A stretch of DNA of 64,000 nucleotides from Marinomonas balearica (GTDB lineage Bacteria; Pseudomonadota; Gammaproteobacteria; Pseudomonadales; Marinomonadaceae): contig NZ_SNXC01000015.1 of NCBI RefSeq assembly GCF_004362145.1, positions 62,001-126,000 on the forward strand, given 5' to 3'. Under the pieces are notes generated by a model, which ran no database searches, was not told where the DNA came from, and saw nothing but the letters and a program-made list of their open reading frames with translations. Position numbers and translations under genes: made by a program. The number at the start of each line of letters is the position of its first letter. Within the stretch, counting starts at the first letter, position 1. Below are positions 2,305 through 9,225 of the stretch, one piece after another.

Positions 2305-2886
2305 ATGTTAGTGGAGTGGCAAACTTGGATCGGCGCCCATGCTGATTCTGTTGGTTTTGTCTTCGTTGGGTTACTACTTCTGACCTACCTGCTTGAGGAT
2401 GTCGCGATTGTGTGCGCGGCGACTCTGGCAACTCAAGGGCTGGTTAATATTCCTGTTGCGCTCATTGCGATCTTTGTCGGCATTGTAACAGGGGATATGG
2501 CGCTTTATGTGTTAGGGCGATATGGCCGCCGTCTTAGAGGCTTGAGATACAAAACGCTCACAAGCCGCTACTTTAAATACACGCGTAAAAAGCTTGTTCA
2601 GCGTCCTTTTCTAAACTTATTTTTAATTCGATTTATTCCGGGTTTAAGAACCATAGGGTTCACATTAAGTGGCTTTATGGCGCTTTCGCCGTGGCTCTTT
2701 CTGGCTGCCGCACTCGTGGCAACGAGTATTTGGAGTGTCTTGATCTTTACGCTTCTCTATTACGTTGGCGTGGCTGCATCCGAGGTATTTCACGAGATTA
2801 AGTGGTTGGTTCCAGTGATTGCGTTATCCGTATTGCTGTTCGCCAACTTGGTTCTTTCTAAATTACTTAAGCGTAGGTATGCGTAG
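2305..2886 (+). CDS. DedA family membrane protein
   Basis: 193-residue integral membrane protein of the DedA/SNARE-associated (PF09335) superfamily. Diagnostic features are an acidic pair in the first membrane segment (LLTYLLEDVAIVCAATL), GDMALYVLGRYGRR near residues 72-85 and the re-entrant motif FLIRFIPGLRTIGFTLSGFMALSPWLF around 108-135, matching the F-x-R-x-x-P-G-x-R signature. DedA proteins are linked to flipping of phospholipids or undecaprenyl phosphate and to membrane homeostasis. The start follows GAGG with 6-base spacing. It heads a seven-gene co-directional row ending in ornithine-lipid synthase, with 8 bases to the next gene, which fits a lipid-transport role. Its substrate is unknown. 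Confidence 0.9.
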   Translation: MLVEWQTWIGAHADSVGFVFVGLLLLTYLLEDVAIVCAATLATQGLVNIPVALIAIFVGIVTGDMALYVLGRYGRRLRGLRYKTLTSRYFKYTRKKLVQRPFLNLFLIRFIPGLRTIGFTLSGFMALSPWLFLAAALVATSIWSVLIFTLLYYVGVAASEVFHEIKWLVPVIALSVLLFANLVLSKLLKRRYA

Positions 2887-2894
2887 CTTCTATT

Positions 2895-4028
2895 ATGACA
2901 TCGACAATAGACATTCAATTTATTGAACCGTATCGAGTGAATGCGGGAATGCCGAAAATGGAGATCAATCCTCAACGGAGCGTGTCTCCCTATGAGTTTA
3001 TGCCCACATGGTTTTTCTACGCACCTGTGATTGTTCAAAGCTTAGCCTTGGGTGTTCGACATGGCGATATCTGCTTGCCATTGATAGCGAACCCAAGCAT
3101 TGAACTGAGCGGCATGGTCGGAGAATCAAAAGAAGCCATTTTGAATCTAGCAGGGCCTTATGCCCAGCAATGGATAGAACCGTTTTGTGCATTAACGAAA
3201 ACCACCGCGTCGTTAGAGCTTCAGGTTGAAAAAGCCTTACATCTTATGGAAGTCAAAGGCCTTGAGTTTCCCGTTGTTGCGAAGCCCGATCTTGGTTGTC
3301 GTGGTGTCGGTGTAAAGTTGATCGATACCTTGCAACAACTGGAAAACTACATTGAGGAGTTTCCTGAAGACGCACGCTTTTTGATACAGCGAAAAGCCCC
3401 TTATGAAGCCGAAGCTGGCGTGTTCTACGTTCGTTATCCGGGGGAATCTAAGGGTAAGATTATCTCGATAACGCTGAAATACGCACCCAGTGTCGTTGGT
3501 GATGGTGTAAATACATTAAAGCAATTAATTGAAAGCTGCCCTCGTGCCAGTCAGCTCAGTCACCTCTATTTTCCAAGACATTTAGACACATTGGATACGG
3601 TTCCAGAGCCAAATGAAGAGGTTCGCCTCGCCTTTGCAGGAAGCCACAGTCGAGGCTCTATTTTTAGAGACGGTAACCAATACATTTCTCAAGCGCTGAC
3701 TGAAAAACTCGACGACATTCTAAAAGATGTAGAGGGATATTATTACGGTCGCTTGGATGTCAAATTCGAGAACATTCTTCAACTGATGCAAGGCGAGAAT
3801 TTCAGCATTTTAGAAATGAACGGCGCCAGCAGTGAAGCTACGCACATTTGGGACTGCAACACACCGCTGAAGCATATTTTTTCGACCTTACTTAAGCAAT
3901 ATCGAATTCTATTTGAAATCGGTGTGCTCAACAAAAAGCGTGGCTTTAAAACACCTAAGCTCACAGCACTACTTAAGGCGTGGCGAGCCGAAAATAAGCT
4001 TGTTAGCCACTACCCATCCACGGATTAG
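2895..4028 (+). CDS. ATP-grasp domain protein, carboxylate-amine ligase-like
   Basis: 377 residues. The C-terminal two thirds is an ATP-grasp fold: FPVVAKPDLGCRGVGVKLID (about 124-143, Gly-rich nucleotide loop), RFLIQRKAP (adenine-binding strand), YGRLDVKFENI and FSILEMNGASSEATHIWD (about 300-320, Mg-binding Glu and Asn). This resembles D-Ala-D-Ala ligase-type enzymes that join a carboxylate to an amine via an acyl phosphate. The N-terminal part has YEFMPTWFFYAPVIVQSLALG and ANPSIELSGMVGESK, seen in a family of uncharacterised ATP-grasp proteins. Substrate unknown. Its position between DedA and downstream lipid-type genes suggests amino acid or amine attachment to a lipid or wall component, which is inference. 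Confidence 0.8.
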   Translation: MTSTIDIQFIEPYRVNAGMPKMEINPQRSVSPYEFMPTWFFYAPVIVQSLALGVRHGDICLPLIANPSIELSGMVGESKEAILNLAGPYAQQWIEPFCALTKTTASLELQVEKALHLMEVKGLEFPVVAKPDLGCRGVGVKLIDTLQQLENYIEEFPEDARFLIQRKAPYEAEAGVFYVRYPGESKGKIISITLKYAPSVVGDGVNTLKQLIESCPRASQLSHLYFPRHLDTLDTVPEPNEEVRLAFAGSHSRGSIFRDGNQYISQALTEKLDDILKDVEGYYYGRLDVKFENILQLMQGENFSILEMNGASSEATHIWDCNTPLKHIFSTLLKQYRILFEIGVLNKKRGFKTPKLTALLKAWRAENKLVSHYPSTD

Positions 4029-4043
4029 GGCAGAGATAAAACT

Positions 4044-4613
4044 ATGACAGTGATTTCAATAAGCAGAACAGAAACCCGCGACGATCGCGCGATTATTGAC
4101 GGCGCGTTAGAGGTGCTTCAACAAGGGTTAGATTGTCTTAATACGCTGACGCACGCGCAATATGTGCATGTCGCCAGCCCGCATATGATGAGCAGCATCG
4201 GCGCGCATTATCGTCATATGTTGGATGTTTTTCAGGCCGTAGCGAACAGTGTGATAACCGCCAGTACGATGGAGAATAGAGCGATCGATTATAACCTTCG
4301 TCGTCGAGGGCATACGGTTGAAACGTCGATTGACGTTGCCAAAGCAGAAATACACGTCTTGATGGAATGGTTGCATTCGTTAAACAGCGTTCAGATTTGT
4401 CAAAGTACCACCGTCATCAACGAACTGTCGTCTTCACGAGAAGTTTCCAGTCACTCTCAATCCACACTGGGGCGGGAGATCACTTTCTCAGCGCTGCACG
4501 CAAACCACCATTACGCCATGATCAAAGTCGCGTTGAGCCTTATTAACGTGGAAGTTAACGAGCTGTTTGGTATTGCGCCAGCAACGGCAACCTACATGAG
4601 AGGGCAGTCCTAA
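4044..4613 (+). CDS. DinB-like four-helix-bundle protein
   Basis: 189-residue protein, mostly helical, with His residues placed as in the DinB/YfiT metal-binding superfamily: SSIGAHYRHMLDVF around residue 54 and FSALHANHHYAMIKVAL around 150-166. Members bind a divalent metal and include thiol-dependent transferases (mycothiol or bacillithiol type); many are uncharacterised. No signal peptide, so cytoplasmic. It lies 15 bases after the ATP-grasp gene, and its stop overlaps the next start (TAATG), pointing to translational coupling. The function is not known; the family call is fairly confident from the His pattern and length. Confidence 0.7.
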   Translation: MTVISISRTETRDDRAIIDGALEVLQQGLDCLNTLTHAQYVHVASPHMMSSIGAHYRHMLDVFQAVANSVITASTMENRAIDYNLRRRGHTVETSIDVAKAEIHVLMEWLHSLNSVQICQSTTVINELSSSREVSSHSQSTLGREITFSALHANHHYAMIKVALSLINVEVNELFGIAPATATYMRGQS

Positions 4614-5344
4614 TGTGCTCGGTGACATGGGTTACTGATAAAAGCGGCTATCAAATCTTTTTTAATCGAGATGAGCAAAAGACGCGCGCAGCCGCGCTTG
4701 CTCCGAAGCAGATGACCTTAAAAGGGGTCGATGTATTAATGCCAATTGATCCAGTAGGCGGTGGCAGTTGGATCAGTACGAATGAAGCGGGATTATCTCT
4801 ATGTTTGCTCAACAACTACCAAGGCCAAGTGCCAGAAGGGGAGCTGACAAGTAGAGGGCATTTTCTCAAACTGCTTTCCAACTCTACTGGGCTTGAACAG
4901 ATCGCGGCGAGGTTCAGAGTCTTAACGATGGAAAGCTTTGCACCTTTTACCCTTTTAGTATTTGTGTATGGCCAAACGCAAGTTACCGGCTTTTGTTGGG
5001 ACGGAAAGACCGTCTCCATAAAAAAGATGCAGTCTCCTCACTTTTCGTCGGGGGTCGATTTGGGCGAAGTGTGTGCTTACCGACGCTCGGTCTACGATGC
5101 CATCGAATCGCCGGATTTTGATTCTTTGATTGATTTTCATCGCCATCATCATGCTTCTGAATCACACCGTTCTGTGTGTATGCACAGGGAAGATGCGCAA
5201 AGTGTGAGTTTTACTTTCGTGCAAGTGAGCGCACAAGAACAGTTGATGAGCTATGTTGCAGGGCCGCCTTGTGAAAAGTTATCGAAAACGGCCATAGAAC
5301 GAAACAGTGTCATGCTGACTCGATACACGAGTTTAGTGTGCTAG
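4613..5344 (+). CDS. NRDE/TANGO2 family protein
   Basis: 243 residues beginning MCSVTWVTDKSGYQIFFNRDE. Cys2 and the Asn-Arg-Asp-Glu motif at residues 18-21 define the NRDE (PF05742) family, together with PIDPVGGGSWISTNEAGLSLCLLNNY around 44-68. Eukaryotic TANGO2 has been linked to heme trafficking and lipid metabolism; bacterial roles are poorly known. The protein is slightly short for the family and has a run of His residues (HRHHHASESH) around 179-188 that might bind metal. It overlaps the preceding DinB-like gene by one base, so the two are probably translated together. Confidence 0.85.
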   Translation: MCSVTWVTDKSGYQIFFNRDEQKTRAAALAPKQMTLKGVDVLMPIDPVGGGSWISTNEAGLSLCLLNNYQGQVPEGELTSRGHFLKLLSNSTGLEQIAARFRVLTMESFAPFTLLVFVYGQTQVTGFCWDGKTVSIKKMQSPHFSSGVDLGEVCAYRRSVYDAIESPDFDSLIDFHRHHHASESHRSVCMHREDAQSVSFTFVQVSAQEQLMSYVAGPPCEKLSKTAIERNSVMLTRYTSLVC

Positions 5345-5417
5345 CCAAAGATCTCGATTCGTCGAGGAAACCGTAGATTTCAACATTAACCCATTTGGAA
5401 ACTAATTGGAGAACGTA

Positions 5418-5858
5418 ATGAAAACAGTTTTTGCCGCTCTGATTTTGATGATGAGCACGTTTAGCTTTGCTCAAAGCGAAGTATACACAGGGTATTTCAG
5501 CAGCAAAGCGGTGGGTGGCTACGATACCGTGGCGTACTTTACCGAAGGTGAACCCGTGGAAGGGAAGTCAGAATTTCAGACAAAATACAAAGGTGCAAAC
5601 TGGTATTTTGCCTCGCAAATGAACTTGGATCTGTTTAAACAAGACCCTGAAAAATACGCGCCTCAGTATGGCGGTTATTGCGCTTGGGCTGTCTCAGCGA
5701 AAAACGATTTTGCAAAAGGCGATCCAGAACATTGGTCTATAGTTAATGGCAAGCTCTATTTAAATTACAACCAAAATATCAAAGATAAGTGGAATCAGGA
5801 CGTTCCCGGTCACATTGCTCAAGGCGATAAAAACTGGCCAACGCTCATCGCAAAATAA
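5418..5858 (+). CDS. Secreted YHS-domain protein
   Basis: 146-residue exported protein. A signal peptide (MKTVFAALILMMSTFSFAQ) precedes a YHS domain with GGYDTVAYFTEGEPVEG and the hallmark APQYGGYCAWAVSAKN. YHS domains are small modules proposed to bind metals, and exported versions are common but uncharacterised. The ATG at 5418 was chosen over one at 5406 because GGAG lies 6 bases upstream and the signal peptide then starts with MK. It sits 73 bases after the NRDE gene and 26 before a DoxX-like gene, in the same row. Confidence 0.85.
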   Translation: MKTVFAALILMMSTFSFAQSEVYTGYFSSKAVGGYDTVAYFTEGEPVEGKSEFQTKYKGANWYFASQMNLDLFKQDPEKYAPQYGGYCAWAVSAKNDFAKGDPEHWSIVNGKLYLNYNQNIKDKWNQDVPGHIAQGDKNWPTLIAK

Positions 5859-5884
5859 ATCGAATTGGTGTTAGAGACTCTAAA

Positions 5885-6349
5885 ATGAAACCGAAACATA
5901 TCAAATATGCGCTGTCTGCCTTCATTGCGTTTGTGTTTATTCAATCGCTTTTCTTCAAATTTACGGGGTCTTATGAAACCCACTATATTTTTAGTACGTT
6001 AGGCGATTGGTCGGGCTTTGGCTGGTTTGCAGATTATGGCGCGTATATAGTGGGTACAGCTGAATTGATTGCCGCCATCGTGCTGTTTAGCCGGTTGCAT
6101 GGCTTTGGCGCACTCATGAGTGTTGGTGTGATGTCGGGCGCGATCTTCTTTCACTTATTCACACCGCTAGGGATAGAAATGCCAGCGTTTAGTGATCAAG
6201 GTGACATTGTCGGATACGACGGCGGTTTGCTGTTCGGAATGGCCTGCCTAGTTTGGTTAAGTGCGCTTTATTTGACTGTCAAAGACCTGACATCTTCTGA
6301 AGGTACACTGTCTACTATTCTGCCACTGAACACCGCTGAAAAAATGTGA
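5885..6349 (+). CDS. DoxX-like integral membrane protein
   Basis: 154 residues with four predicted membrane segments: residues about 8-27, 48-70 (YIVGTAELIAAIVLF), 75-97 (FGALMSVGVMSGAIFFHLFTPLG) and 112-130. The pattern K-F-x-G in the first helix and T-A-E-L near the second fits the DoxX/DUF4870-like superfamily. Members are small membrane proteins sometimes tied to thiol redox or respiratory functions; no catalytic role can be shown here. It lies between the YHS protein and OlsF with short gaps (26 and 10 bases), so it is probably co-transcribed. Confidence 0.75.
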   Translation: MKPKHIKYALSAFIAFVFIQSLFFKFTGSYETHYIFSTLGDWSGFGWFADYGAYIVGTAELIAAIVLFSRLHGFGALMSVGVMSGAIFFHLFTPLGIEMPAFSDQGDIVGYDGGLLFGMACLVWLSALYLTVKDLTSSEGTLSTILPLNTAEKM

Positions 6350-6359
6350 GGCATTTAGA

Positions 6360-8126
6360 ATGCAAAGTCCTTTTCGTCTTCCTCGTATCACGCCATTTGG
6401 CTTGGGTGAATCCTTTCTAGAATGGATGACAGGCTTAGCTAAACTGGATCGTTTATATCAAAAACGTCCACAAAACCTGTCCAGTTTCGAGTTCATGCGA
6501 CACACTCTAAAGGTGCTTAACGTGGATTACCGTGTTGGCGCCGGAAGCATTGAGAATATCCCCAAAGAGGGACCCGTTCTTATTGTGGCCAATCATCCTT
6601 TGGGTGCAGTCGAGGGCGTGATTCTCGCGGACTTAATTGGCGAAGTAAGGCAAGACGTGAAGGTGTTGGCGAATCAGTTGTTAAAGCGTTTGCCAGAGAT
6701 ATCAGATCTGTTTATTGGTGTGGATGTATTCGAAGGCAAATCGTCCGCTCGCACCAATGCCAAAGCCGTCCGAGATGCACACAAACATTTGAGTGACGGC
6801 GGAGTGCTGGTTGTTTTCCCCGCCGGAGAAGTCTCTACGTATCGTGACCCCGAAACAGGAAAAAGCGCAAACATGTTGGCCGATGTGGAATGGAGCCAAA
6901 GCGTCGCCAAGTTTATCAAACGAAGCTGCGCAGTAACGGTTCCTATGTACATCGATGGGAAAAACAGCGCCTTGTTTTATAACGCAGGAAAAATACATCC
7001 CTTATTGCGAACGGCCATGTTAGGACGCGAGCTATTGAACAAACATTCTTCGAACATTCAGATCTTAATCGGCAACCCATTACCGTATTCTGAAACAGGG
7101 CGTTTTGAAGACAACAAAGAACTGGTCAAGTATCTACGCCTGAACACCTACTTAATGAGCCCACAGAGTGCTGCGCAAACTAAAACTGTATCGCAACACT
7201 TAGACCCTGTTATCTCGCCGATATCGCCCGATGTACTGGAATCAGAAATCGACGCATTAAGCGACGAGAGTTGTTTATTGAAGCAAGGGGATTTCGACGT
7301 GTATTGCGTCCACACGCGTGATATACCCAATATGATGCAAGAAATTGGTCGCGTACGGGAAGAGAACTTCAGAGCGGTTGGCGAAGGCAGCGGAAACGCA
7401 TGCGACATTGATGAATACGACCACTACTATCGACAACTCTTTGTCTGGCAGCGTAAAGAGCGAGAACTGGTCGGCGCGTATCGAATGGGGCTGGTGGATG
7501 AATTGCTGGAGAACAACGGGATCGACGGCTTGTACTCCAAAAGCTTATTCCAATACGGGCCAGAGTTTTTAGAGACATTAGACACCTCCATTGAAATGGG
7601 GCGCTCTGTCGTGAAACAAAAGTATCAGCGTAACTTAAACTCCTTACTGCTACTTTGGAAAGGGATCGCCGCGTTTGCATCAAAGCACCCAAAATACACC
7701 AACTTGTTTGGCCCAGTGAGCATCAGCAACGATTACAGCCCAATGGCACGCCAACTGATGATGGAAGCATTGTCGCTGCACTGCTACGACGAACACAAAG
7801 CGGAATTAGTTTCGCCCTCCGTTCCGTTTAAAAAAGCAGGCAATACATTTTGGCAGCCGCATCTACTATCGTGCTTAGCCGATACCAGCTTACTGTCTAA
7901 CTTATTAAGCCGAATGGAAGATGGCAAAGGCCTTCCTGTTTTACTGCGTCAGTACCTTAAAATGAACGGTAAACTCGTCTGTTTTAACCTCGACCCAGAC
8001 TTTAACGACACACTTGATGGCCTCATCGTCGTCGACCTACGTAATGTTCCTCTGAAAACCCTCGGCAAATACATGGGACGAGAAGAAGCCAAAACCTACC
8101 TACTCCAACACGGGCAAGACGTTTAA
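6360..8126 (+). CDS. olsF: Bifunctional ornithine lipid synthase (OlsF-type acyltransferase fusion)
   Basis: 588 residues, two acyltransferase halves. The N-terminal half (about 40-260) is a PlsC-like O-acyltransferase with VANHPLGAVEG at 77-86, where Glu85 fills the place of the more usual Asp, and VVFPAGEVST around 156-165. The C-terminal half (about 300-560) is a GNAT/OlsB-type domain with YRMGLVDELLENNGIDGLYSKSLFQYGPEF and EMGRSVVKQKYQRNLNSLLLLWKGIAAF. In OlsF proteins of Serratia and Flavobacterium the C-terminal part N-acylates ornithine with a 3-hydroxy fatty acid and the N-terminal part adds the second acyl chain, making a phosphorus-free membrane lipid. It ends the seven-gene row and is followed by a hairpin. 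Confidence 0.85.
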   Translation: MQSPFRLPRITPFGLGESFLEWMTGLAKLDRLYQKRPQNLSSFEFMRHTLKVLNVDYRVGAGSIENIPKEGPVLIVANHPLGAVEGVILADLIGEVRQDVKVLANQLLKRLPEISDLFIGVDVFEGKSSARTNAKAVRDAHKHLSDGGVLVVFPAGEVSTYRDPETGKSANMLADVEWSQSVAKFIKRSCAVTVPMYIDGKNSALFYNAGKIHPLLRTAMLGRELLNKHSSNIQILIGNPLPYSETGRFEDNKELVKYLRLNTYLMSPQSAAQTKTVSQHLDPVISPISPDVLESEIDALSDESCLLKQGDFDVYCVHTRDIPNMMQEIGRVREENFRAVGEGSGNACDIDEYDHYYRQLFVWQRKERELVGAYRMGLVDELLENNGIDGLYSKSLFQYGPEFLETLDTSIEMGRSVVKQKYQRNLNSLLLLWKGIAAFASKHPKYTNLFGPVSISNDYSPMARQLMMEALSLHCYDEHKAELVSPSVPFKKAGNTFWQPHLLSCLADTSLLSNLLSRMEDGKGLPVLLRQYLKMNGKLVCFNLDPDFNDTLDGLIVVDLRNVPLKTLGKYMGREEAKTYLLQHGQDV

Positions 8127-8136
8127 ACCATTTTGT

Positions 8137-8174
8137 TCCCTCCCTCTCCCTTATCAAAGGGAGCTGAGGGAAAA
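8137..8174 (+). terminator. Hairpin after olsF, REP-like terminator
   Basis: CCCTCTCCCTT and AAGGGAGCTGAGGG form an imperfect stem with a tiny loop just past the olsF stop. The sequence resembles a widespread gammaproteobacterial intergenic palindrome; it could act as a terminator or mRNA-stabilising element, though no clean U-run follows. Confidence 0.5.
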
Positions 8175-8407
8175 CGGTTGTACAAGAAGGTTCTGGGAAG
8201 AAAGTTATAAAATGGATGTCCTGAATTATGTAACTACCGGAATAACCTCTATCTTCATAAATCGTATTGATCTGCCGCCGGCCTTTGCCAACTTGGGAAC
8301 CAATGAACTCCGCGCACGCCATAAATTGAGCAAAAGGGGTCACGATTATCCTTTTCACAGAGGAGCTAGAATAAATGGCACTGTGTTTAATAGGTAGCGA
8401 CTCAGGC

Positions 8408-8458
8408 ATGCTAGGTTCAAATACAAACATTGACAATATTTGTATTTGAACCTAGCAT
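8408..8458 (+). promoter_or_regulatory. Perfect 20-bp palindrome with embedded promoter, operator of parDE
   Basis: The arm at 8408-8427 (starts ATGCTAGGTTC) is repeated as an exact inverse at 8439-8458, with an 11-base spacer. The spacer holds TTGACA (8430-8435), a perfect -35 box. A 17-base gap leads to TAGCAT (8453-8458), a plausible -10 at the far end of the right arm. The promoter of the antitoxin gene is therefore wrapped in a dyad, as expected for autorepression by ParD or ParDE. The fold could also act as an RNA hairpin for upstream transcription. Confidence 0.7.
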
Positions 8459-8491
8459 TATCTGTATAAATGTCTACCCTTGGAAGTCATC

Positions 8492-8749
8492 ATGCATGTA
8501 TCCCTGACAGCCGAGCTAGAGTCTCGCATTAAAGCTAAAGTTGAAAGCGGCCTGTACAACAATGCCAGCGAAGTGATTCGTGAAGCGCTACGCTTTATGG
8601 ACACACACGAAGACTGGATCCACGAAGTAAAATTGGCTCGCCTGCGTGAACAACTGAAAGTTGGGACTGCCCAACTAGACCGTGGTGAGGGCATTGCCAT
8701 CGAATCAAAATCTGCCTTAGATTCATTGTTCGACGACATTAAAGCTTAA
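8492..8749 (+). CDS. parD: ParD-family antitoxin
   Basis: 85 residues. The N-terminal ribbon-helix-helix reads MHVSLTAELESRIKAKVESGLYNNASEVIREALRFMD, where the LYNNASEVIREALR phrase is characteristic of ParD/CC2985-type antitoxins; the C-terminal tail (about 50-85) is acidic and would wrap the toxin. The ATG at 8492 follows GGAAG with 5-base spacing; an upstream in-frame TTG at 8480 is less likely. It precedes the toxin gene by 5 bases and sits behind the palindromic promoter, so the pair should be autoregulated. Base use is not obviously foreign, but such modules are commonly exchanged. Confidence 0.9.
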   Translation: MHVSLTAELESRIKAKVESGLYNNASEVIREALRFMDTHEDWIHEVKLARLREQLKVGTAQLDRGEGIAIESKSALDSLFDDIKA

Positions 8750-8754
8750 AGCGC

Positions 8755-9054
8755 ATGCCTGCACATCAACTTTTTATAGCCCCTGTCGCTACAGCCGACC
8801 TTAAAGAAATCTATCAGTATGGGCTTCGGCAATGGGGACAAGCCCAATCCGACAGTTACTTAGAAAATCTAAAGGATCATTTTTGGTCTCTTACTGAACA
8901 ACCACTTATGGGCGTTGAGCGCCCCGAACTCCTACCCGGTGTCAGAAGCCTACCCATCGAAAGCCATGCTCTGTTTTACCGAGTCACTGCAGGCACGGTA
9001 GAAATTATCCGTGTACTACATGGCCGTCAAGATCCGAATCGACACTTAAAATAG
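8755..9054 (+). CDS. parE: ParE-family toxin
   Basis: 99 residues of the RelE/ParE toxin fold: LFIAPVATADLKEIYQYGLRQWGQAQSDSYLENLKDHFWSL gives the two N-terminal helices, and GVRSLPIESHALFYRVTAGTVEIIRVLHGRQDPNRHL is the usual C-terminal strand core ending VEIIRVLHGRQD, closely matching chromosomal ParE proteins. Characterised ParE toxins inhibit DNA gyrase. It starts 5 bases after the antitoxin, consistent with coupled translation. The length is normal and nothing suggests inactivation. Confidence 0.9.
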   Translation: MPAHQLFIAPVATADLKEIYQYGLRQWGQAQSDSYLENLKDHFWSLTEQPLMGVERPELLPGVRSLPIESHALFYRVTAGTVEIIRVLHGRQDPNRHLK

Positions 9055-9225
9055 CTCAAGAGGCTTCTCATCTTGACACCGACTGAGCAACTCTCGAACG
9101 GCTTTTCATAAATCTATACAGGCATCTATACAGGCCACCCATAACTTCATTGACGCCAAATCTCTAACTCGTTAATCTCAAATAACTTACTCAAGGATGA
9201 GGTGGTAACTTTTAAATTCAAATAA

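What the first reader, a model, noticed from the sequence alone, without database searches (positions are those of the whole stretch)
2305..8126. Seven-gene row ending in OlsF: candidate undescribed membrane-lipid system
Seen: DedA, ATP-grasp, DinB-like, NRDE/TANGO2, secreted YHS, DoxX and bifunctional ornithine-lipid synthase in one direction, most with gaps of 26 bases or less, one 73-base gap, and one start/stop overlap. Known: OlsF makes ornithine lipid, DedA proteins act on lipid flipping, and ATP-grasp ligases join carboxylates to amines. Inference: the ATP-grasp enzyme could attach an amino acid to an aminolipid or make its precursor, DedA could move the lipid, and YHS/DoxX could act at the membrane. 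No description of such a set is known to me.
Basis: partly seen in the sequence, partly recalled or inferred. Interest (0 to 1): 0.6.

Follow-up and report, generated by a model that had tools for sequence, protein, structure and literature searches.

The report
Conserved aminolipid operon with unstudied ligase
A row of seven genes that ends in a known type of ornithine-lipid maker is kept together across many marine bacteria, and its unstudied ligase and membrane-transporter pair may modify and move these membrane lipids.

Summary
Of 80 named loci carrying the ATP-grasp gene (Marinomonas, Vibrio, Aliivibrio, Photobacterium, Alteromonas, Enterovibrio), 48 keep all seven in order and 28 more lack only DoxX. 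The row was probably passed from Vibrionaceae to Marinomonas. DedA and ATP-grasp are fused in six other loci, once directly after OlsF. Elsewhere the two-enzyme OlsB+OlsA pathway stands in OlsF's place. In the genus, all 25 ATP-grasp carriers have two OlsF-sized genes and all 10 non-carriers one. The V. cholerae counterpart is VCA0651-VCA0646. In print are VCA0646's ornithine-lipid synthesis at low salinity and cell death from overexpressing VCA0646+0647 (OlsF+YHS). My searches found no paper that treats DedA or ATP-grasp as part of an ornithine-lipid locus. The ATP-grasp model is closest to cyanophycin synthetase, an amide ligase. Best reading: ATP-grasp extends the ornithine-lipid head group and DedA flips the product. 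The association is shown; the chemistry is inferred, and many ATP-grasp loci elsewhere have no ornithine-lipid gene beside them.

The parts
2305..2886 (+). DedA/VTT membrane protein, 193 aa; candidate flippase
   Evidence: Pfam VTT 49.2 bits, E 9e-13; invariant E31, D32, R109, P112, G113, R115 in 9 sequences; fused to the ATP-grasp in six other loci
2895..4028 (+). ATP-grasp protein, 377 aa; probable amide ligase
   Evidence: K130, D288, E307, N309 invariant in 15 diverse sequences (their catalytic role is recalled from the family); model pLDDT 89.7, pTM 0.88; nearest PDB chain cyanophycin synthetase 7wae Z 15.8, rmsd 4.6, 277 aligned
4044..4613 (+). DinB-fold protein, 189 aa, possible metal site
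   Evidence: Model pLDDT 86.5; nearest PDB chain DinB/YfiT DR0053 6iz2 Z 15.8, rmsd 2.5, 140 aligned; invariant H55, H58, H152, H155, H156 in 19 sequences
4613..5344 (+). NRDE/TANGO2 family protein, 243 aa, invariant Cys at position 2
   Evidence: Pfam TANGO2 31.4 bits over cut-off; M1, C2 and N18-R19-D20-E21 invariant in 10 sequences
5418..5858 (+). YHS protein with an apparent signal peptide (read by eye)
   Evidence: Pfam YHS 56.9 bits; NCBIfam YHS_seleno_dom 168.5 bits, cut-off 70
5885..6349 (+). DoxX/MauE-like small protein, 154 aa, probably membrane-bound
   Evidence: Pfam MauE 22.5 bits, below cut-off 27; 63 of 106 scanned loci have the full seven-gene row with this gene in the same place
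6360..8126 (+). Bifunctional ornithine-lipid synthase OlsF, 588 aa
   Evidence: Pfam Acyltransf_2 66.1 bits and Acetyltransf_5 76.5 bits; NCBIfam OlsF 422 bits; 65% identical to the homologue in L194, taken to be VCA0646, which published work shows makes ornithine lipid (PMC12186959)

Best explanation
The row is an operon for making and processing an acyloxyacyl aminolipid. OlsF makes ornithine lipid at the inner face of the inner membrane (synthesis shown for the V. cholerae homologue; inferred here). The ATP-grasp enzyme then forms an amide between the free carboxyl of the ornithine head group and an amine such as an amino acid or taurine, or else builds the head group before acylation (inferred). 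DedA, which is fused to the ATP-grasp in some bacteria, moves the product to the outer leaflet (inferred). DinB (possible metal enzyme) and NRDE (possible N-terminal-cysteine hydrolase, recalled) act as cytosolic helpers on acyl or thiol intermediates (weak). YHS and DoxX act on the periplasmic side (weak; YHS and OlsF are genetically coupled in V. cholerae).
For: Order kept in 48 of 80 named loci, 76 of 80 if DoxX is ignored. Marinomonas copies nest within Vibrionaceae in a rooted ATP-grasp tree (quick tree, several weak nodes), so the set seems to have been kept as a unit after transfer. Ornithine-lipid synthases sit beside this ATP-grasp in eight arrangements: the main row; the rearranged genus type L049/L054/L055; L050; L217 and L198; L152; OlsF then VTT-ATP-grasp fusion in L218; OlsB+OlsA instead of OlsF in L153/L154; OlsB in Variovorax L187. 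In the genus 25 of 25 carriers have two OlsF-sized PF13444 genes and 10 of 10 non-carriers have one (Fisher 5e-9, not corrected for kinship); in one carrier the second OlsF is on another contig and in one it is 46 kb away (G005, G012). 40 of 40 tested Vibrio carriers have an OlsF against 13 of 19 tested non-carriers (Fisher 6e-4). Nearest folds are cyanophycin synthetase, then glutathione synthetase, LysX/ArgX, RimK and others. V. cholerae VCA0650-1, 0648-9 and 0646-7 fall together in a regulator mutant (PMC7600106 Table 1).
Against: In the class of G975, 16 of 20 loci examined have DedA with the ATP-grasp, but none of the 20 has a detected OlsF, OlsB or OlsA next to it (three of these contigs are under 5 kb, and my OlsB and OlsA models rest on two sequences each). 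In 16 of those 20 genomes PF13444 was searched and lies elsewhere. Salinivibrio, L133 and the M. spartinae rows and two Vibrio rows lack OlsF. One Vibrio (G462) keeps OlsF with only a YHS remnant beside it. G167 and G080 have ATP-grasp with DinB and no ornithine-lipid gene nearby. PMC12186959 labels the E. coli product 'unmodified ornithine lipid' and I found no heavier derivative in its text. Deleting vca0646-0649 did not change cell death (PMC11573629). No substrate was tested.
Confidence: 0.5

Rival explanations
1. A co-regulated envelope-stress operon: OlsF makes plain ornithine lipid, while DedA-ATP-grasp and the other genes do separate envelope jobs and are together only because they are needed under the same stress.
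For: ATP-grasp loci without adjacent OlsF/OlsB/OlsA: 20 of 20 examined from one class and Salinivibrio. YHS and/or DoxX lie near the ATP-grasp in L242, L254, L259, L265 and L215 without an ornithine-lipid gene. In V. cholerae the genes fall together with copper, Cpx and thiol genes in a regulator mutant (PMC7600106 Table 1).
Against: Repeated pairing of this one ATP-grasp family with two different ornithine-lipid pathways and co-occurrence with the second OlsF in the genus even where it is not adjacent.
Confidence: 0.28
2. The ATP-grasp enzyme aminoacylates another membrane lipid or carrier (for example a phospholipid or undecaprenyl phosphate) and DedA flips that; OlsF is a companion for low-phosphate or low-salt membranes.
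For: Fusions of VTT and ATP-grasp; the window DedA and two others match the UptA undecaprenyl-phosphate transporter model weakly.
Against: UptA matches are far below its cut-off (26.3 of 250 bits in the window copy). It does not explain the tie to OlsF and OlsB+OlsA.
Confidence: 0.14
3. The ATP-grasp, DinB and NRDE proteins make or recycle a small soluble peptide or thiol, unrelated to lipids.
For: Relatives by fold make glutathione, cyanophycin and amino-acid adducts; DinB relatives by fold include bacillithiol and mycothiol transferases.
Against: Direct fusion of the ATP-grasp to a membrane VTT domain in six loci and the ornithine-lipid synthase neighbours.
Confidence: 0.08

Closest known systems
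Vibrio cholerae vca0646-0649 operon (PMC11573629; PMC12186959)
   Same: Mapped here with the PMC12186959 primers (5 of 8 exact in L194): VCA0649 DinB, VCA0648 NRDE, VCA0647 YHS, VCA0646 OlsF, in the same order as in the window.
   Different: The papers treat four genes as the operon; ATP-grasp and DedA directly upstream (VCA0650, VCA0651) are outside it. No DoxX-like gene was found in L194; the window has one.
Bifunctional ornithine-lipid synthase OlsF
   Same: Both acyltransferase domains, full length.
   Different: Here up to six partner genes are kept with it; many carriers also hold a second, separate OlsF.
Ornithine-taurine lipid (cerilipin) of Gluconobacter cerinus
   Same: A known lipid that contains both ornithine and taurine, the kind of product proposed here (passages in PMC6669457, PMC4484230, PMC12493201).
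   Different: No gene for the taurine step was named in the passages I saw; no Gluconobacter genome was searched here by name.
Cyanophycin synthetase CphA1, ATP-grasp domain
   Same: Nearest solved fold of the ATP-grasp model, Z 15.8 over 277 residues.
   Different: 17% identity over the aligned part; 877-residue chain; makes a polypeptide, not a lipid (recalled).

Membership tests
Ornithine-lipid synthase OlsF | N-terminal O-acyltransferase and C-terminal N-acyltransferase domains in one protein | tested here: met
   PF19576 at 40-267 and PF13444 at 333-432, both over cut-off
Ornithine-lipid synthase OlsF | NCBIfam equivalog NF052615 score of 620 bits | tested here: not met
   422 bits; the L194 homologue, taken to be VCA0646 whose activity is published, scores 434, so this cut-off misses active members
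Ornithine-lipid synthase OlsF | Makes ornithine lipid | not testable with these tools
   Shown in print for VCA0646 (PMC12186959); L194 homologue 65% identical to the window protein
ATP-grasp ligase | ATP-grasp fold and conserved ATP/Mg residues | tested here: met
   Model and PDB comparison; K130, D288, E307, N309 invariant in 15 sequences (roles recalled)
ATP-grasp ligase | Amide-bond formation on a lipid | not testable with these tools
   No substrate data
DedA/VTT family | VTT domain over cut-off | tested here: met
   49.2 bits, cut-off 33.9
DinB/YfiT superfamily | DinB fold with conserved His residues | tested here: met
   6iz2 Z 15.8; five His invariant in 19 sequences; metal itself not tested; no Pfam hit
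NRDE/TANGO2 | TANGO2 profile over cut-off with N-terminal Cys and NRDE motif | tested here: met
   31.4 bits; Cys2 and NRDE invariant in 10 sequences
DoxX/MauE | Profile match over cut-off | tested here: inconclusive
   MauE 22.5 bits, cut-off 27; no DoxX hit at E 0.001
V. cholerae vca0646-0649 operon | Same four genes in the same order | tested here: met
   Homology and primer mapping in L194; the window has DoxX between YHS and OlsF in addition

The most novel reading that the evidence does not exclude
DedA and this ATP-grasp family form a dedicated head-group extension and flipping system for aminolipids: the ligase amidates the carboxyl of ornithine lipid with an amine and the DedA protein is its flippase, so that the row makes a heavier aminolipid not yet seen in Vibrio or Marinomonas. 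The cell death seen when V. cholerae OlsF and YHS are overexpressed without VCA0650-0651 would then reflect unprocessed ornithine lipid.
Probability: 0.33. Interest if true: 0.8.

Novelty: new variant of a known kind. Interest (0 to 1): 0.62.

Why it matters
About half of sequenced bacterial species are thought able to make ornithine lipids (PMC12186959, PMC12493201), but from memory I know of no named enzyme that extends their head group through the carboxyl and no named flippase for them. This row offers one candidate for each, kept together from Marinomonas to Vibrio and fused into one protein elsewhere. It also joins separate V. cholerae reports, one on quorum-controlled cell death by genes 'of unknown function' and one on low-salinity ornithine lipid, into one locus, and gives a family to each of its genes.

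Tried and rejected
Chance neighbourhood or close-relative synteny: rejected and the tree. The upstream AraC-type regulator (1140-2141) as part of the set: among the loci its homologue lies upstream only in L031 (L114 has a 26% hit downstream), so it was left out.

A general link between ATP-grasp and N-acyltransferases: 54 of 54 ATP-grasp carriers have PF13444, but so do 19 of 22 non-carriers (10 of 10 in the genus, 9 of 12 in the class of G975), so presence alone says little there; in the Gammaproteobacterial-type sample the rate is 76 of 185, carriers included. Selenocysteine in the YHS protein: the window copy reads through with Cys; not pursued. The fold searches list only what Foldseek ranked high, so absent families say nothing.

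Papers: three or more of YHS domain, NRDE, DinB family, ATP-grasp, VTT domain and ornithine lipid: 0 papers. OlsF+ATP-grasp and ornithine lipid+ATP-grasp: one review each time, the same one, which mentions ATP-grasp only in its reference list. DedA+ATP-grasp: three papers, seen as a listing only, on other topics. VCA0650/VCA0651: one paper, a table row. Only open-licence papers are held.

Rows dropped: L057 (weak match) was left out; 66 of the 146 confirmed loci were not returned by the tool, and the 80 returned are the best-matching ones; 20 of the 30 carriers were fetched with wide flanks; 40 of 71 Vibrio carriers and 19 of 77 non-carriers were tested. The profiles, used again, were built mostly from the same loci they then scanned. 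Loci of the genus set and the named set partly come from the same species.
Full report
What is there. The seven genes lie at 2305-8126 on the + strand with gaps of 8, 15, -1, 73, 26 and 10 bases. Pfam and NCBIfam support DedA/VTT, TANGO2/NRDE, YHS and OlsF. The ATP-grasp and DinB-like proteins have no Pfam hit in the window copy, but AlphaFold models (pLDDT 89.7 and 86.5) are closest to cyanophycin synthetase (7wae, Z 15.8, rmsd 4.6, 277 aligned) and DinB/YfiT DR0053 (6iz2, Z 15.8, rmsd 2.5, 140 aligned). The DoxX label rests on a sub-threshold MauE hit. No terminator-like site on the + strand falls in the gaps.

Conservation. A profile of the ATP-grasp found 146 confirmed loci in named genomes, of which the best 80 were returned. 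Of these 80, 48 keep dedA-grasp-dinB-NRDE-YHS-doxX-olsF, 28 the same without doxX, 2 lack olsF, 1 lacks dinB and NRDE, and 1 ends after NRDE. They cover Marinomonas, Vibrio, Aliivibrio, Photobacterium, Enterovibrio and one Alteromonas. In 26 further loci from the first genome set (L031-L056), 15 have all seven, 4 lack doxX, 2 lack olsF, 3 have dedA-grasp-olsF-dinB-NRDE, 1 (L050) has dedA-grasp-YHS-doxX-olsF with dinB reversed, and 1 has the ATP-grasp alone; some species are in both sets. Not every genome has the row: 25 of 35 of the genus and 71 of 148 sampled in the Vibrio group have the ATP-grasp. In a tree rooted with the outgroup loci L186, L215 and L218, the main Marinomonas type lies inside Vibrionaceae, the Alteromonas locus and L214 lie inside a Vibrio clade, and a second type of the row in the genus branches outside (quick tree, several weak nodes). 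The set thus looks transferred as a unit.

The core and its link to aminolipids. DedA and ATP-grasp are one protein in two Azospirillum plasmids and in L218, L265, L242 and L248 (in L242 the VTT score is just under the cut-off), and next to each other or fused in 16 of 20 loci from the class of G975. In L218, OlsF stands directly before the fusion. In L153 and L154 the row is dinB-NRDE-ATP-grasp-OlsB-OlsA-YHS, that is, the two-enzyme ornithine-lipid pathway in place of OlsF (NCBIfam E 4e-52 and 2e-50 for L153, below the equivalog cut-offs). OlsB shares the N-acyltransferase domain family with OlsF; OlsA is a different O-acyltransferase. In Variovorax an OlsB follows the ATP-grasp. In the genus, the 25 genomes with the ATP-grasp each have two OlsF-sized PF13444 genes and the 10 without have one; in one of the 25 the second OlsF is on another contig than the row and in one it is 46 kb away. 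In Vibrio 40 of 40 tested carriers have an OlsF and 13 of 19 tested non-carriers. The rate of PF13444 in the class sample is 76 of 185. Fisher values of 5e-9 and 6e-4 ignore kinship.

Results against a strict link. None of the 20 loci from the class of G975 has a detected OlsF, OlsB or OlsA neighbour; three of these contigs are under 5 kb. In the 16 of those 20 genomes searched, the PF13444 gene lies elsewhere, and 9 of 12 non-carriers of that class have one too. Salinivibrio, L133, the M. spartinae rows and two Vibrio rows lack OlsF, and one Vibrio keeps OlsF with only a remnant of YHS. G167 and G080 have the ATP-grasp with DinB but no ornithine-lipid gene nearby.

The V. cholerae counterpart. 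One of 227 genomes of the Vibrio group held the published VCA0646 forward primer, exactly; I take it to be V. cholerae. Of eight primers of PMC12186959 mapped on that locus, five are exact and three have 1 to 3 mismatches. Their places with the homology give VCA0649 = DinB, VCA0648 = NRDE, VCA0647 = YHS, VCA0646 = OlsF. ATP-grasp and DedA lie directly upstream, and PMC7600106 Table 1 (passages seen) lists VCA0650-1 as 'D-alanine-D-alanine ligase, hypothetical', so VCA0650 = ATP-grasp and VCA0651 = DedA (inferred). In that table VCA0650-1, 0648-9 and 0646-7 fall together (log2 -2.9, -2.1, -2.0) on loss of VCA0231. PMC11573629 (abstract, passages, section 10) reports that HapR activates vca0646-0649, that overexpressing vca0646 with vca0647 causes cell death without type VI secretion, that deletion of the four does not change cell death, and that the functions are unknown. 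PMC12186959 (abstract, introduction, first results, sections 7 and 9, passages) shows that VCA0646 makes ornithine lipid in E. coli and is needed for it at low salinity in V. cholerae, with a salt-responsive promoter just before it and a weak region before VCA0649 that is not induced at low salt. The latter fits VCA0649 being inside a longer operon (inference). PMC12186959 does not contain the words ATP-grasp, DedA, YHS, NRDE, DinB or taurine; PMC11573629 does not contain ornithine, DinB, DedA, YHS, NRDE, ATP-grasp, vca0650 or lipid. So OlsF and YHS are genetically coupled in a relative, and the overexpressed set there lacked ATP-grasp and DedA.

Mechanism. Ornithine lipid has a free carboxyl. 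ATP-grasp enzymes of the cyanophycin synthetase, LysX and RimK kind join a carboxyl to an amine (established knowledge, recalled). An ornithine-taurine lipid is known from Gluconobacter (passages), which is the kind of product such an enzyme could make. A DedA fused to the ligase suits moving the product. Steps shown: gene content, order, conservation, fold, co-occurrence, and, for the homologue in print, ornithine-lipid synthesis. Steps inferred: substrate, product, flipping, and all roles of DinB, NRDE, YHS and DoxX. PMC12186959 labels the E. coli product unmodified ornithine lipid and I found no heavier derivative in its text; that E. coli test had OlsF alone.

Verdict. The synthase and four genes of the counterpart are known; the DedA-ATP-grasp core as part of an aminolipid locus was not found in print in the searches.

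Noticed in passing
5404-8144 against L031 (G010): DNA identity to the nearest relative is 75-81% in the first genes but 96% over YHS-DoxX-OlsF, so this end of the row was probably exchanged recently; the window OlsF also falls apart from the other Marinomonas OlsF proteins in a tree, with weak support.
   Followed up: partly
8480-9054: ParD/ParE toxin-antitoxin pair right after the row, with a palindrome at about 8410-8460 (by eye) that may be its operator; window 8145-9123 and L031 share no similar DNA there.
   Followed up: partly
G000:C7:137558-137860, outside the window: PF13444 match in a second, separate OlsF-sized gene of the same genome, about 11.5 kb beyond the window end.
   Followed up: partly
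1140-2141: AraC-type regulator closest to EutR (232 bits, cut-off 319) just upstream of the row; seen upstream of the row in only one other locus.
   Followed up: no
L195 5508-7260, L196 5746-6872, L197 4942-6071: ATP-grasp gene split into two pieces in three Vibrio-group genomes; sequencing error or decay.
   Followed up: no
L242, L254, L259, L265, L215: YHS and/or DoxX-like genes recur near the DedA-ATP-grasp pair even where no ornithine-lipid synthase is adjacent.
   Followed up: partly
L156 6230-7174: A TauE/SafE-type membrane protein lies beside the ATP-grasp in G080.
   Followed up: no
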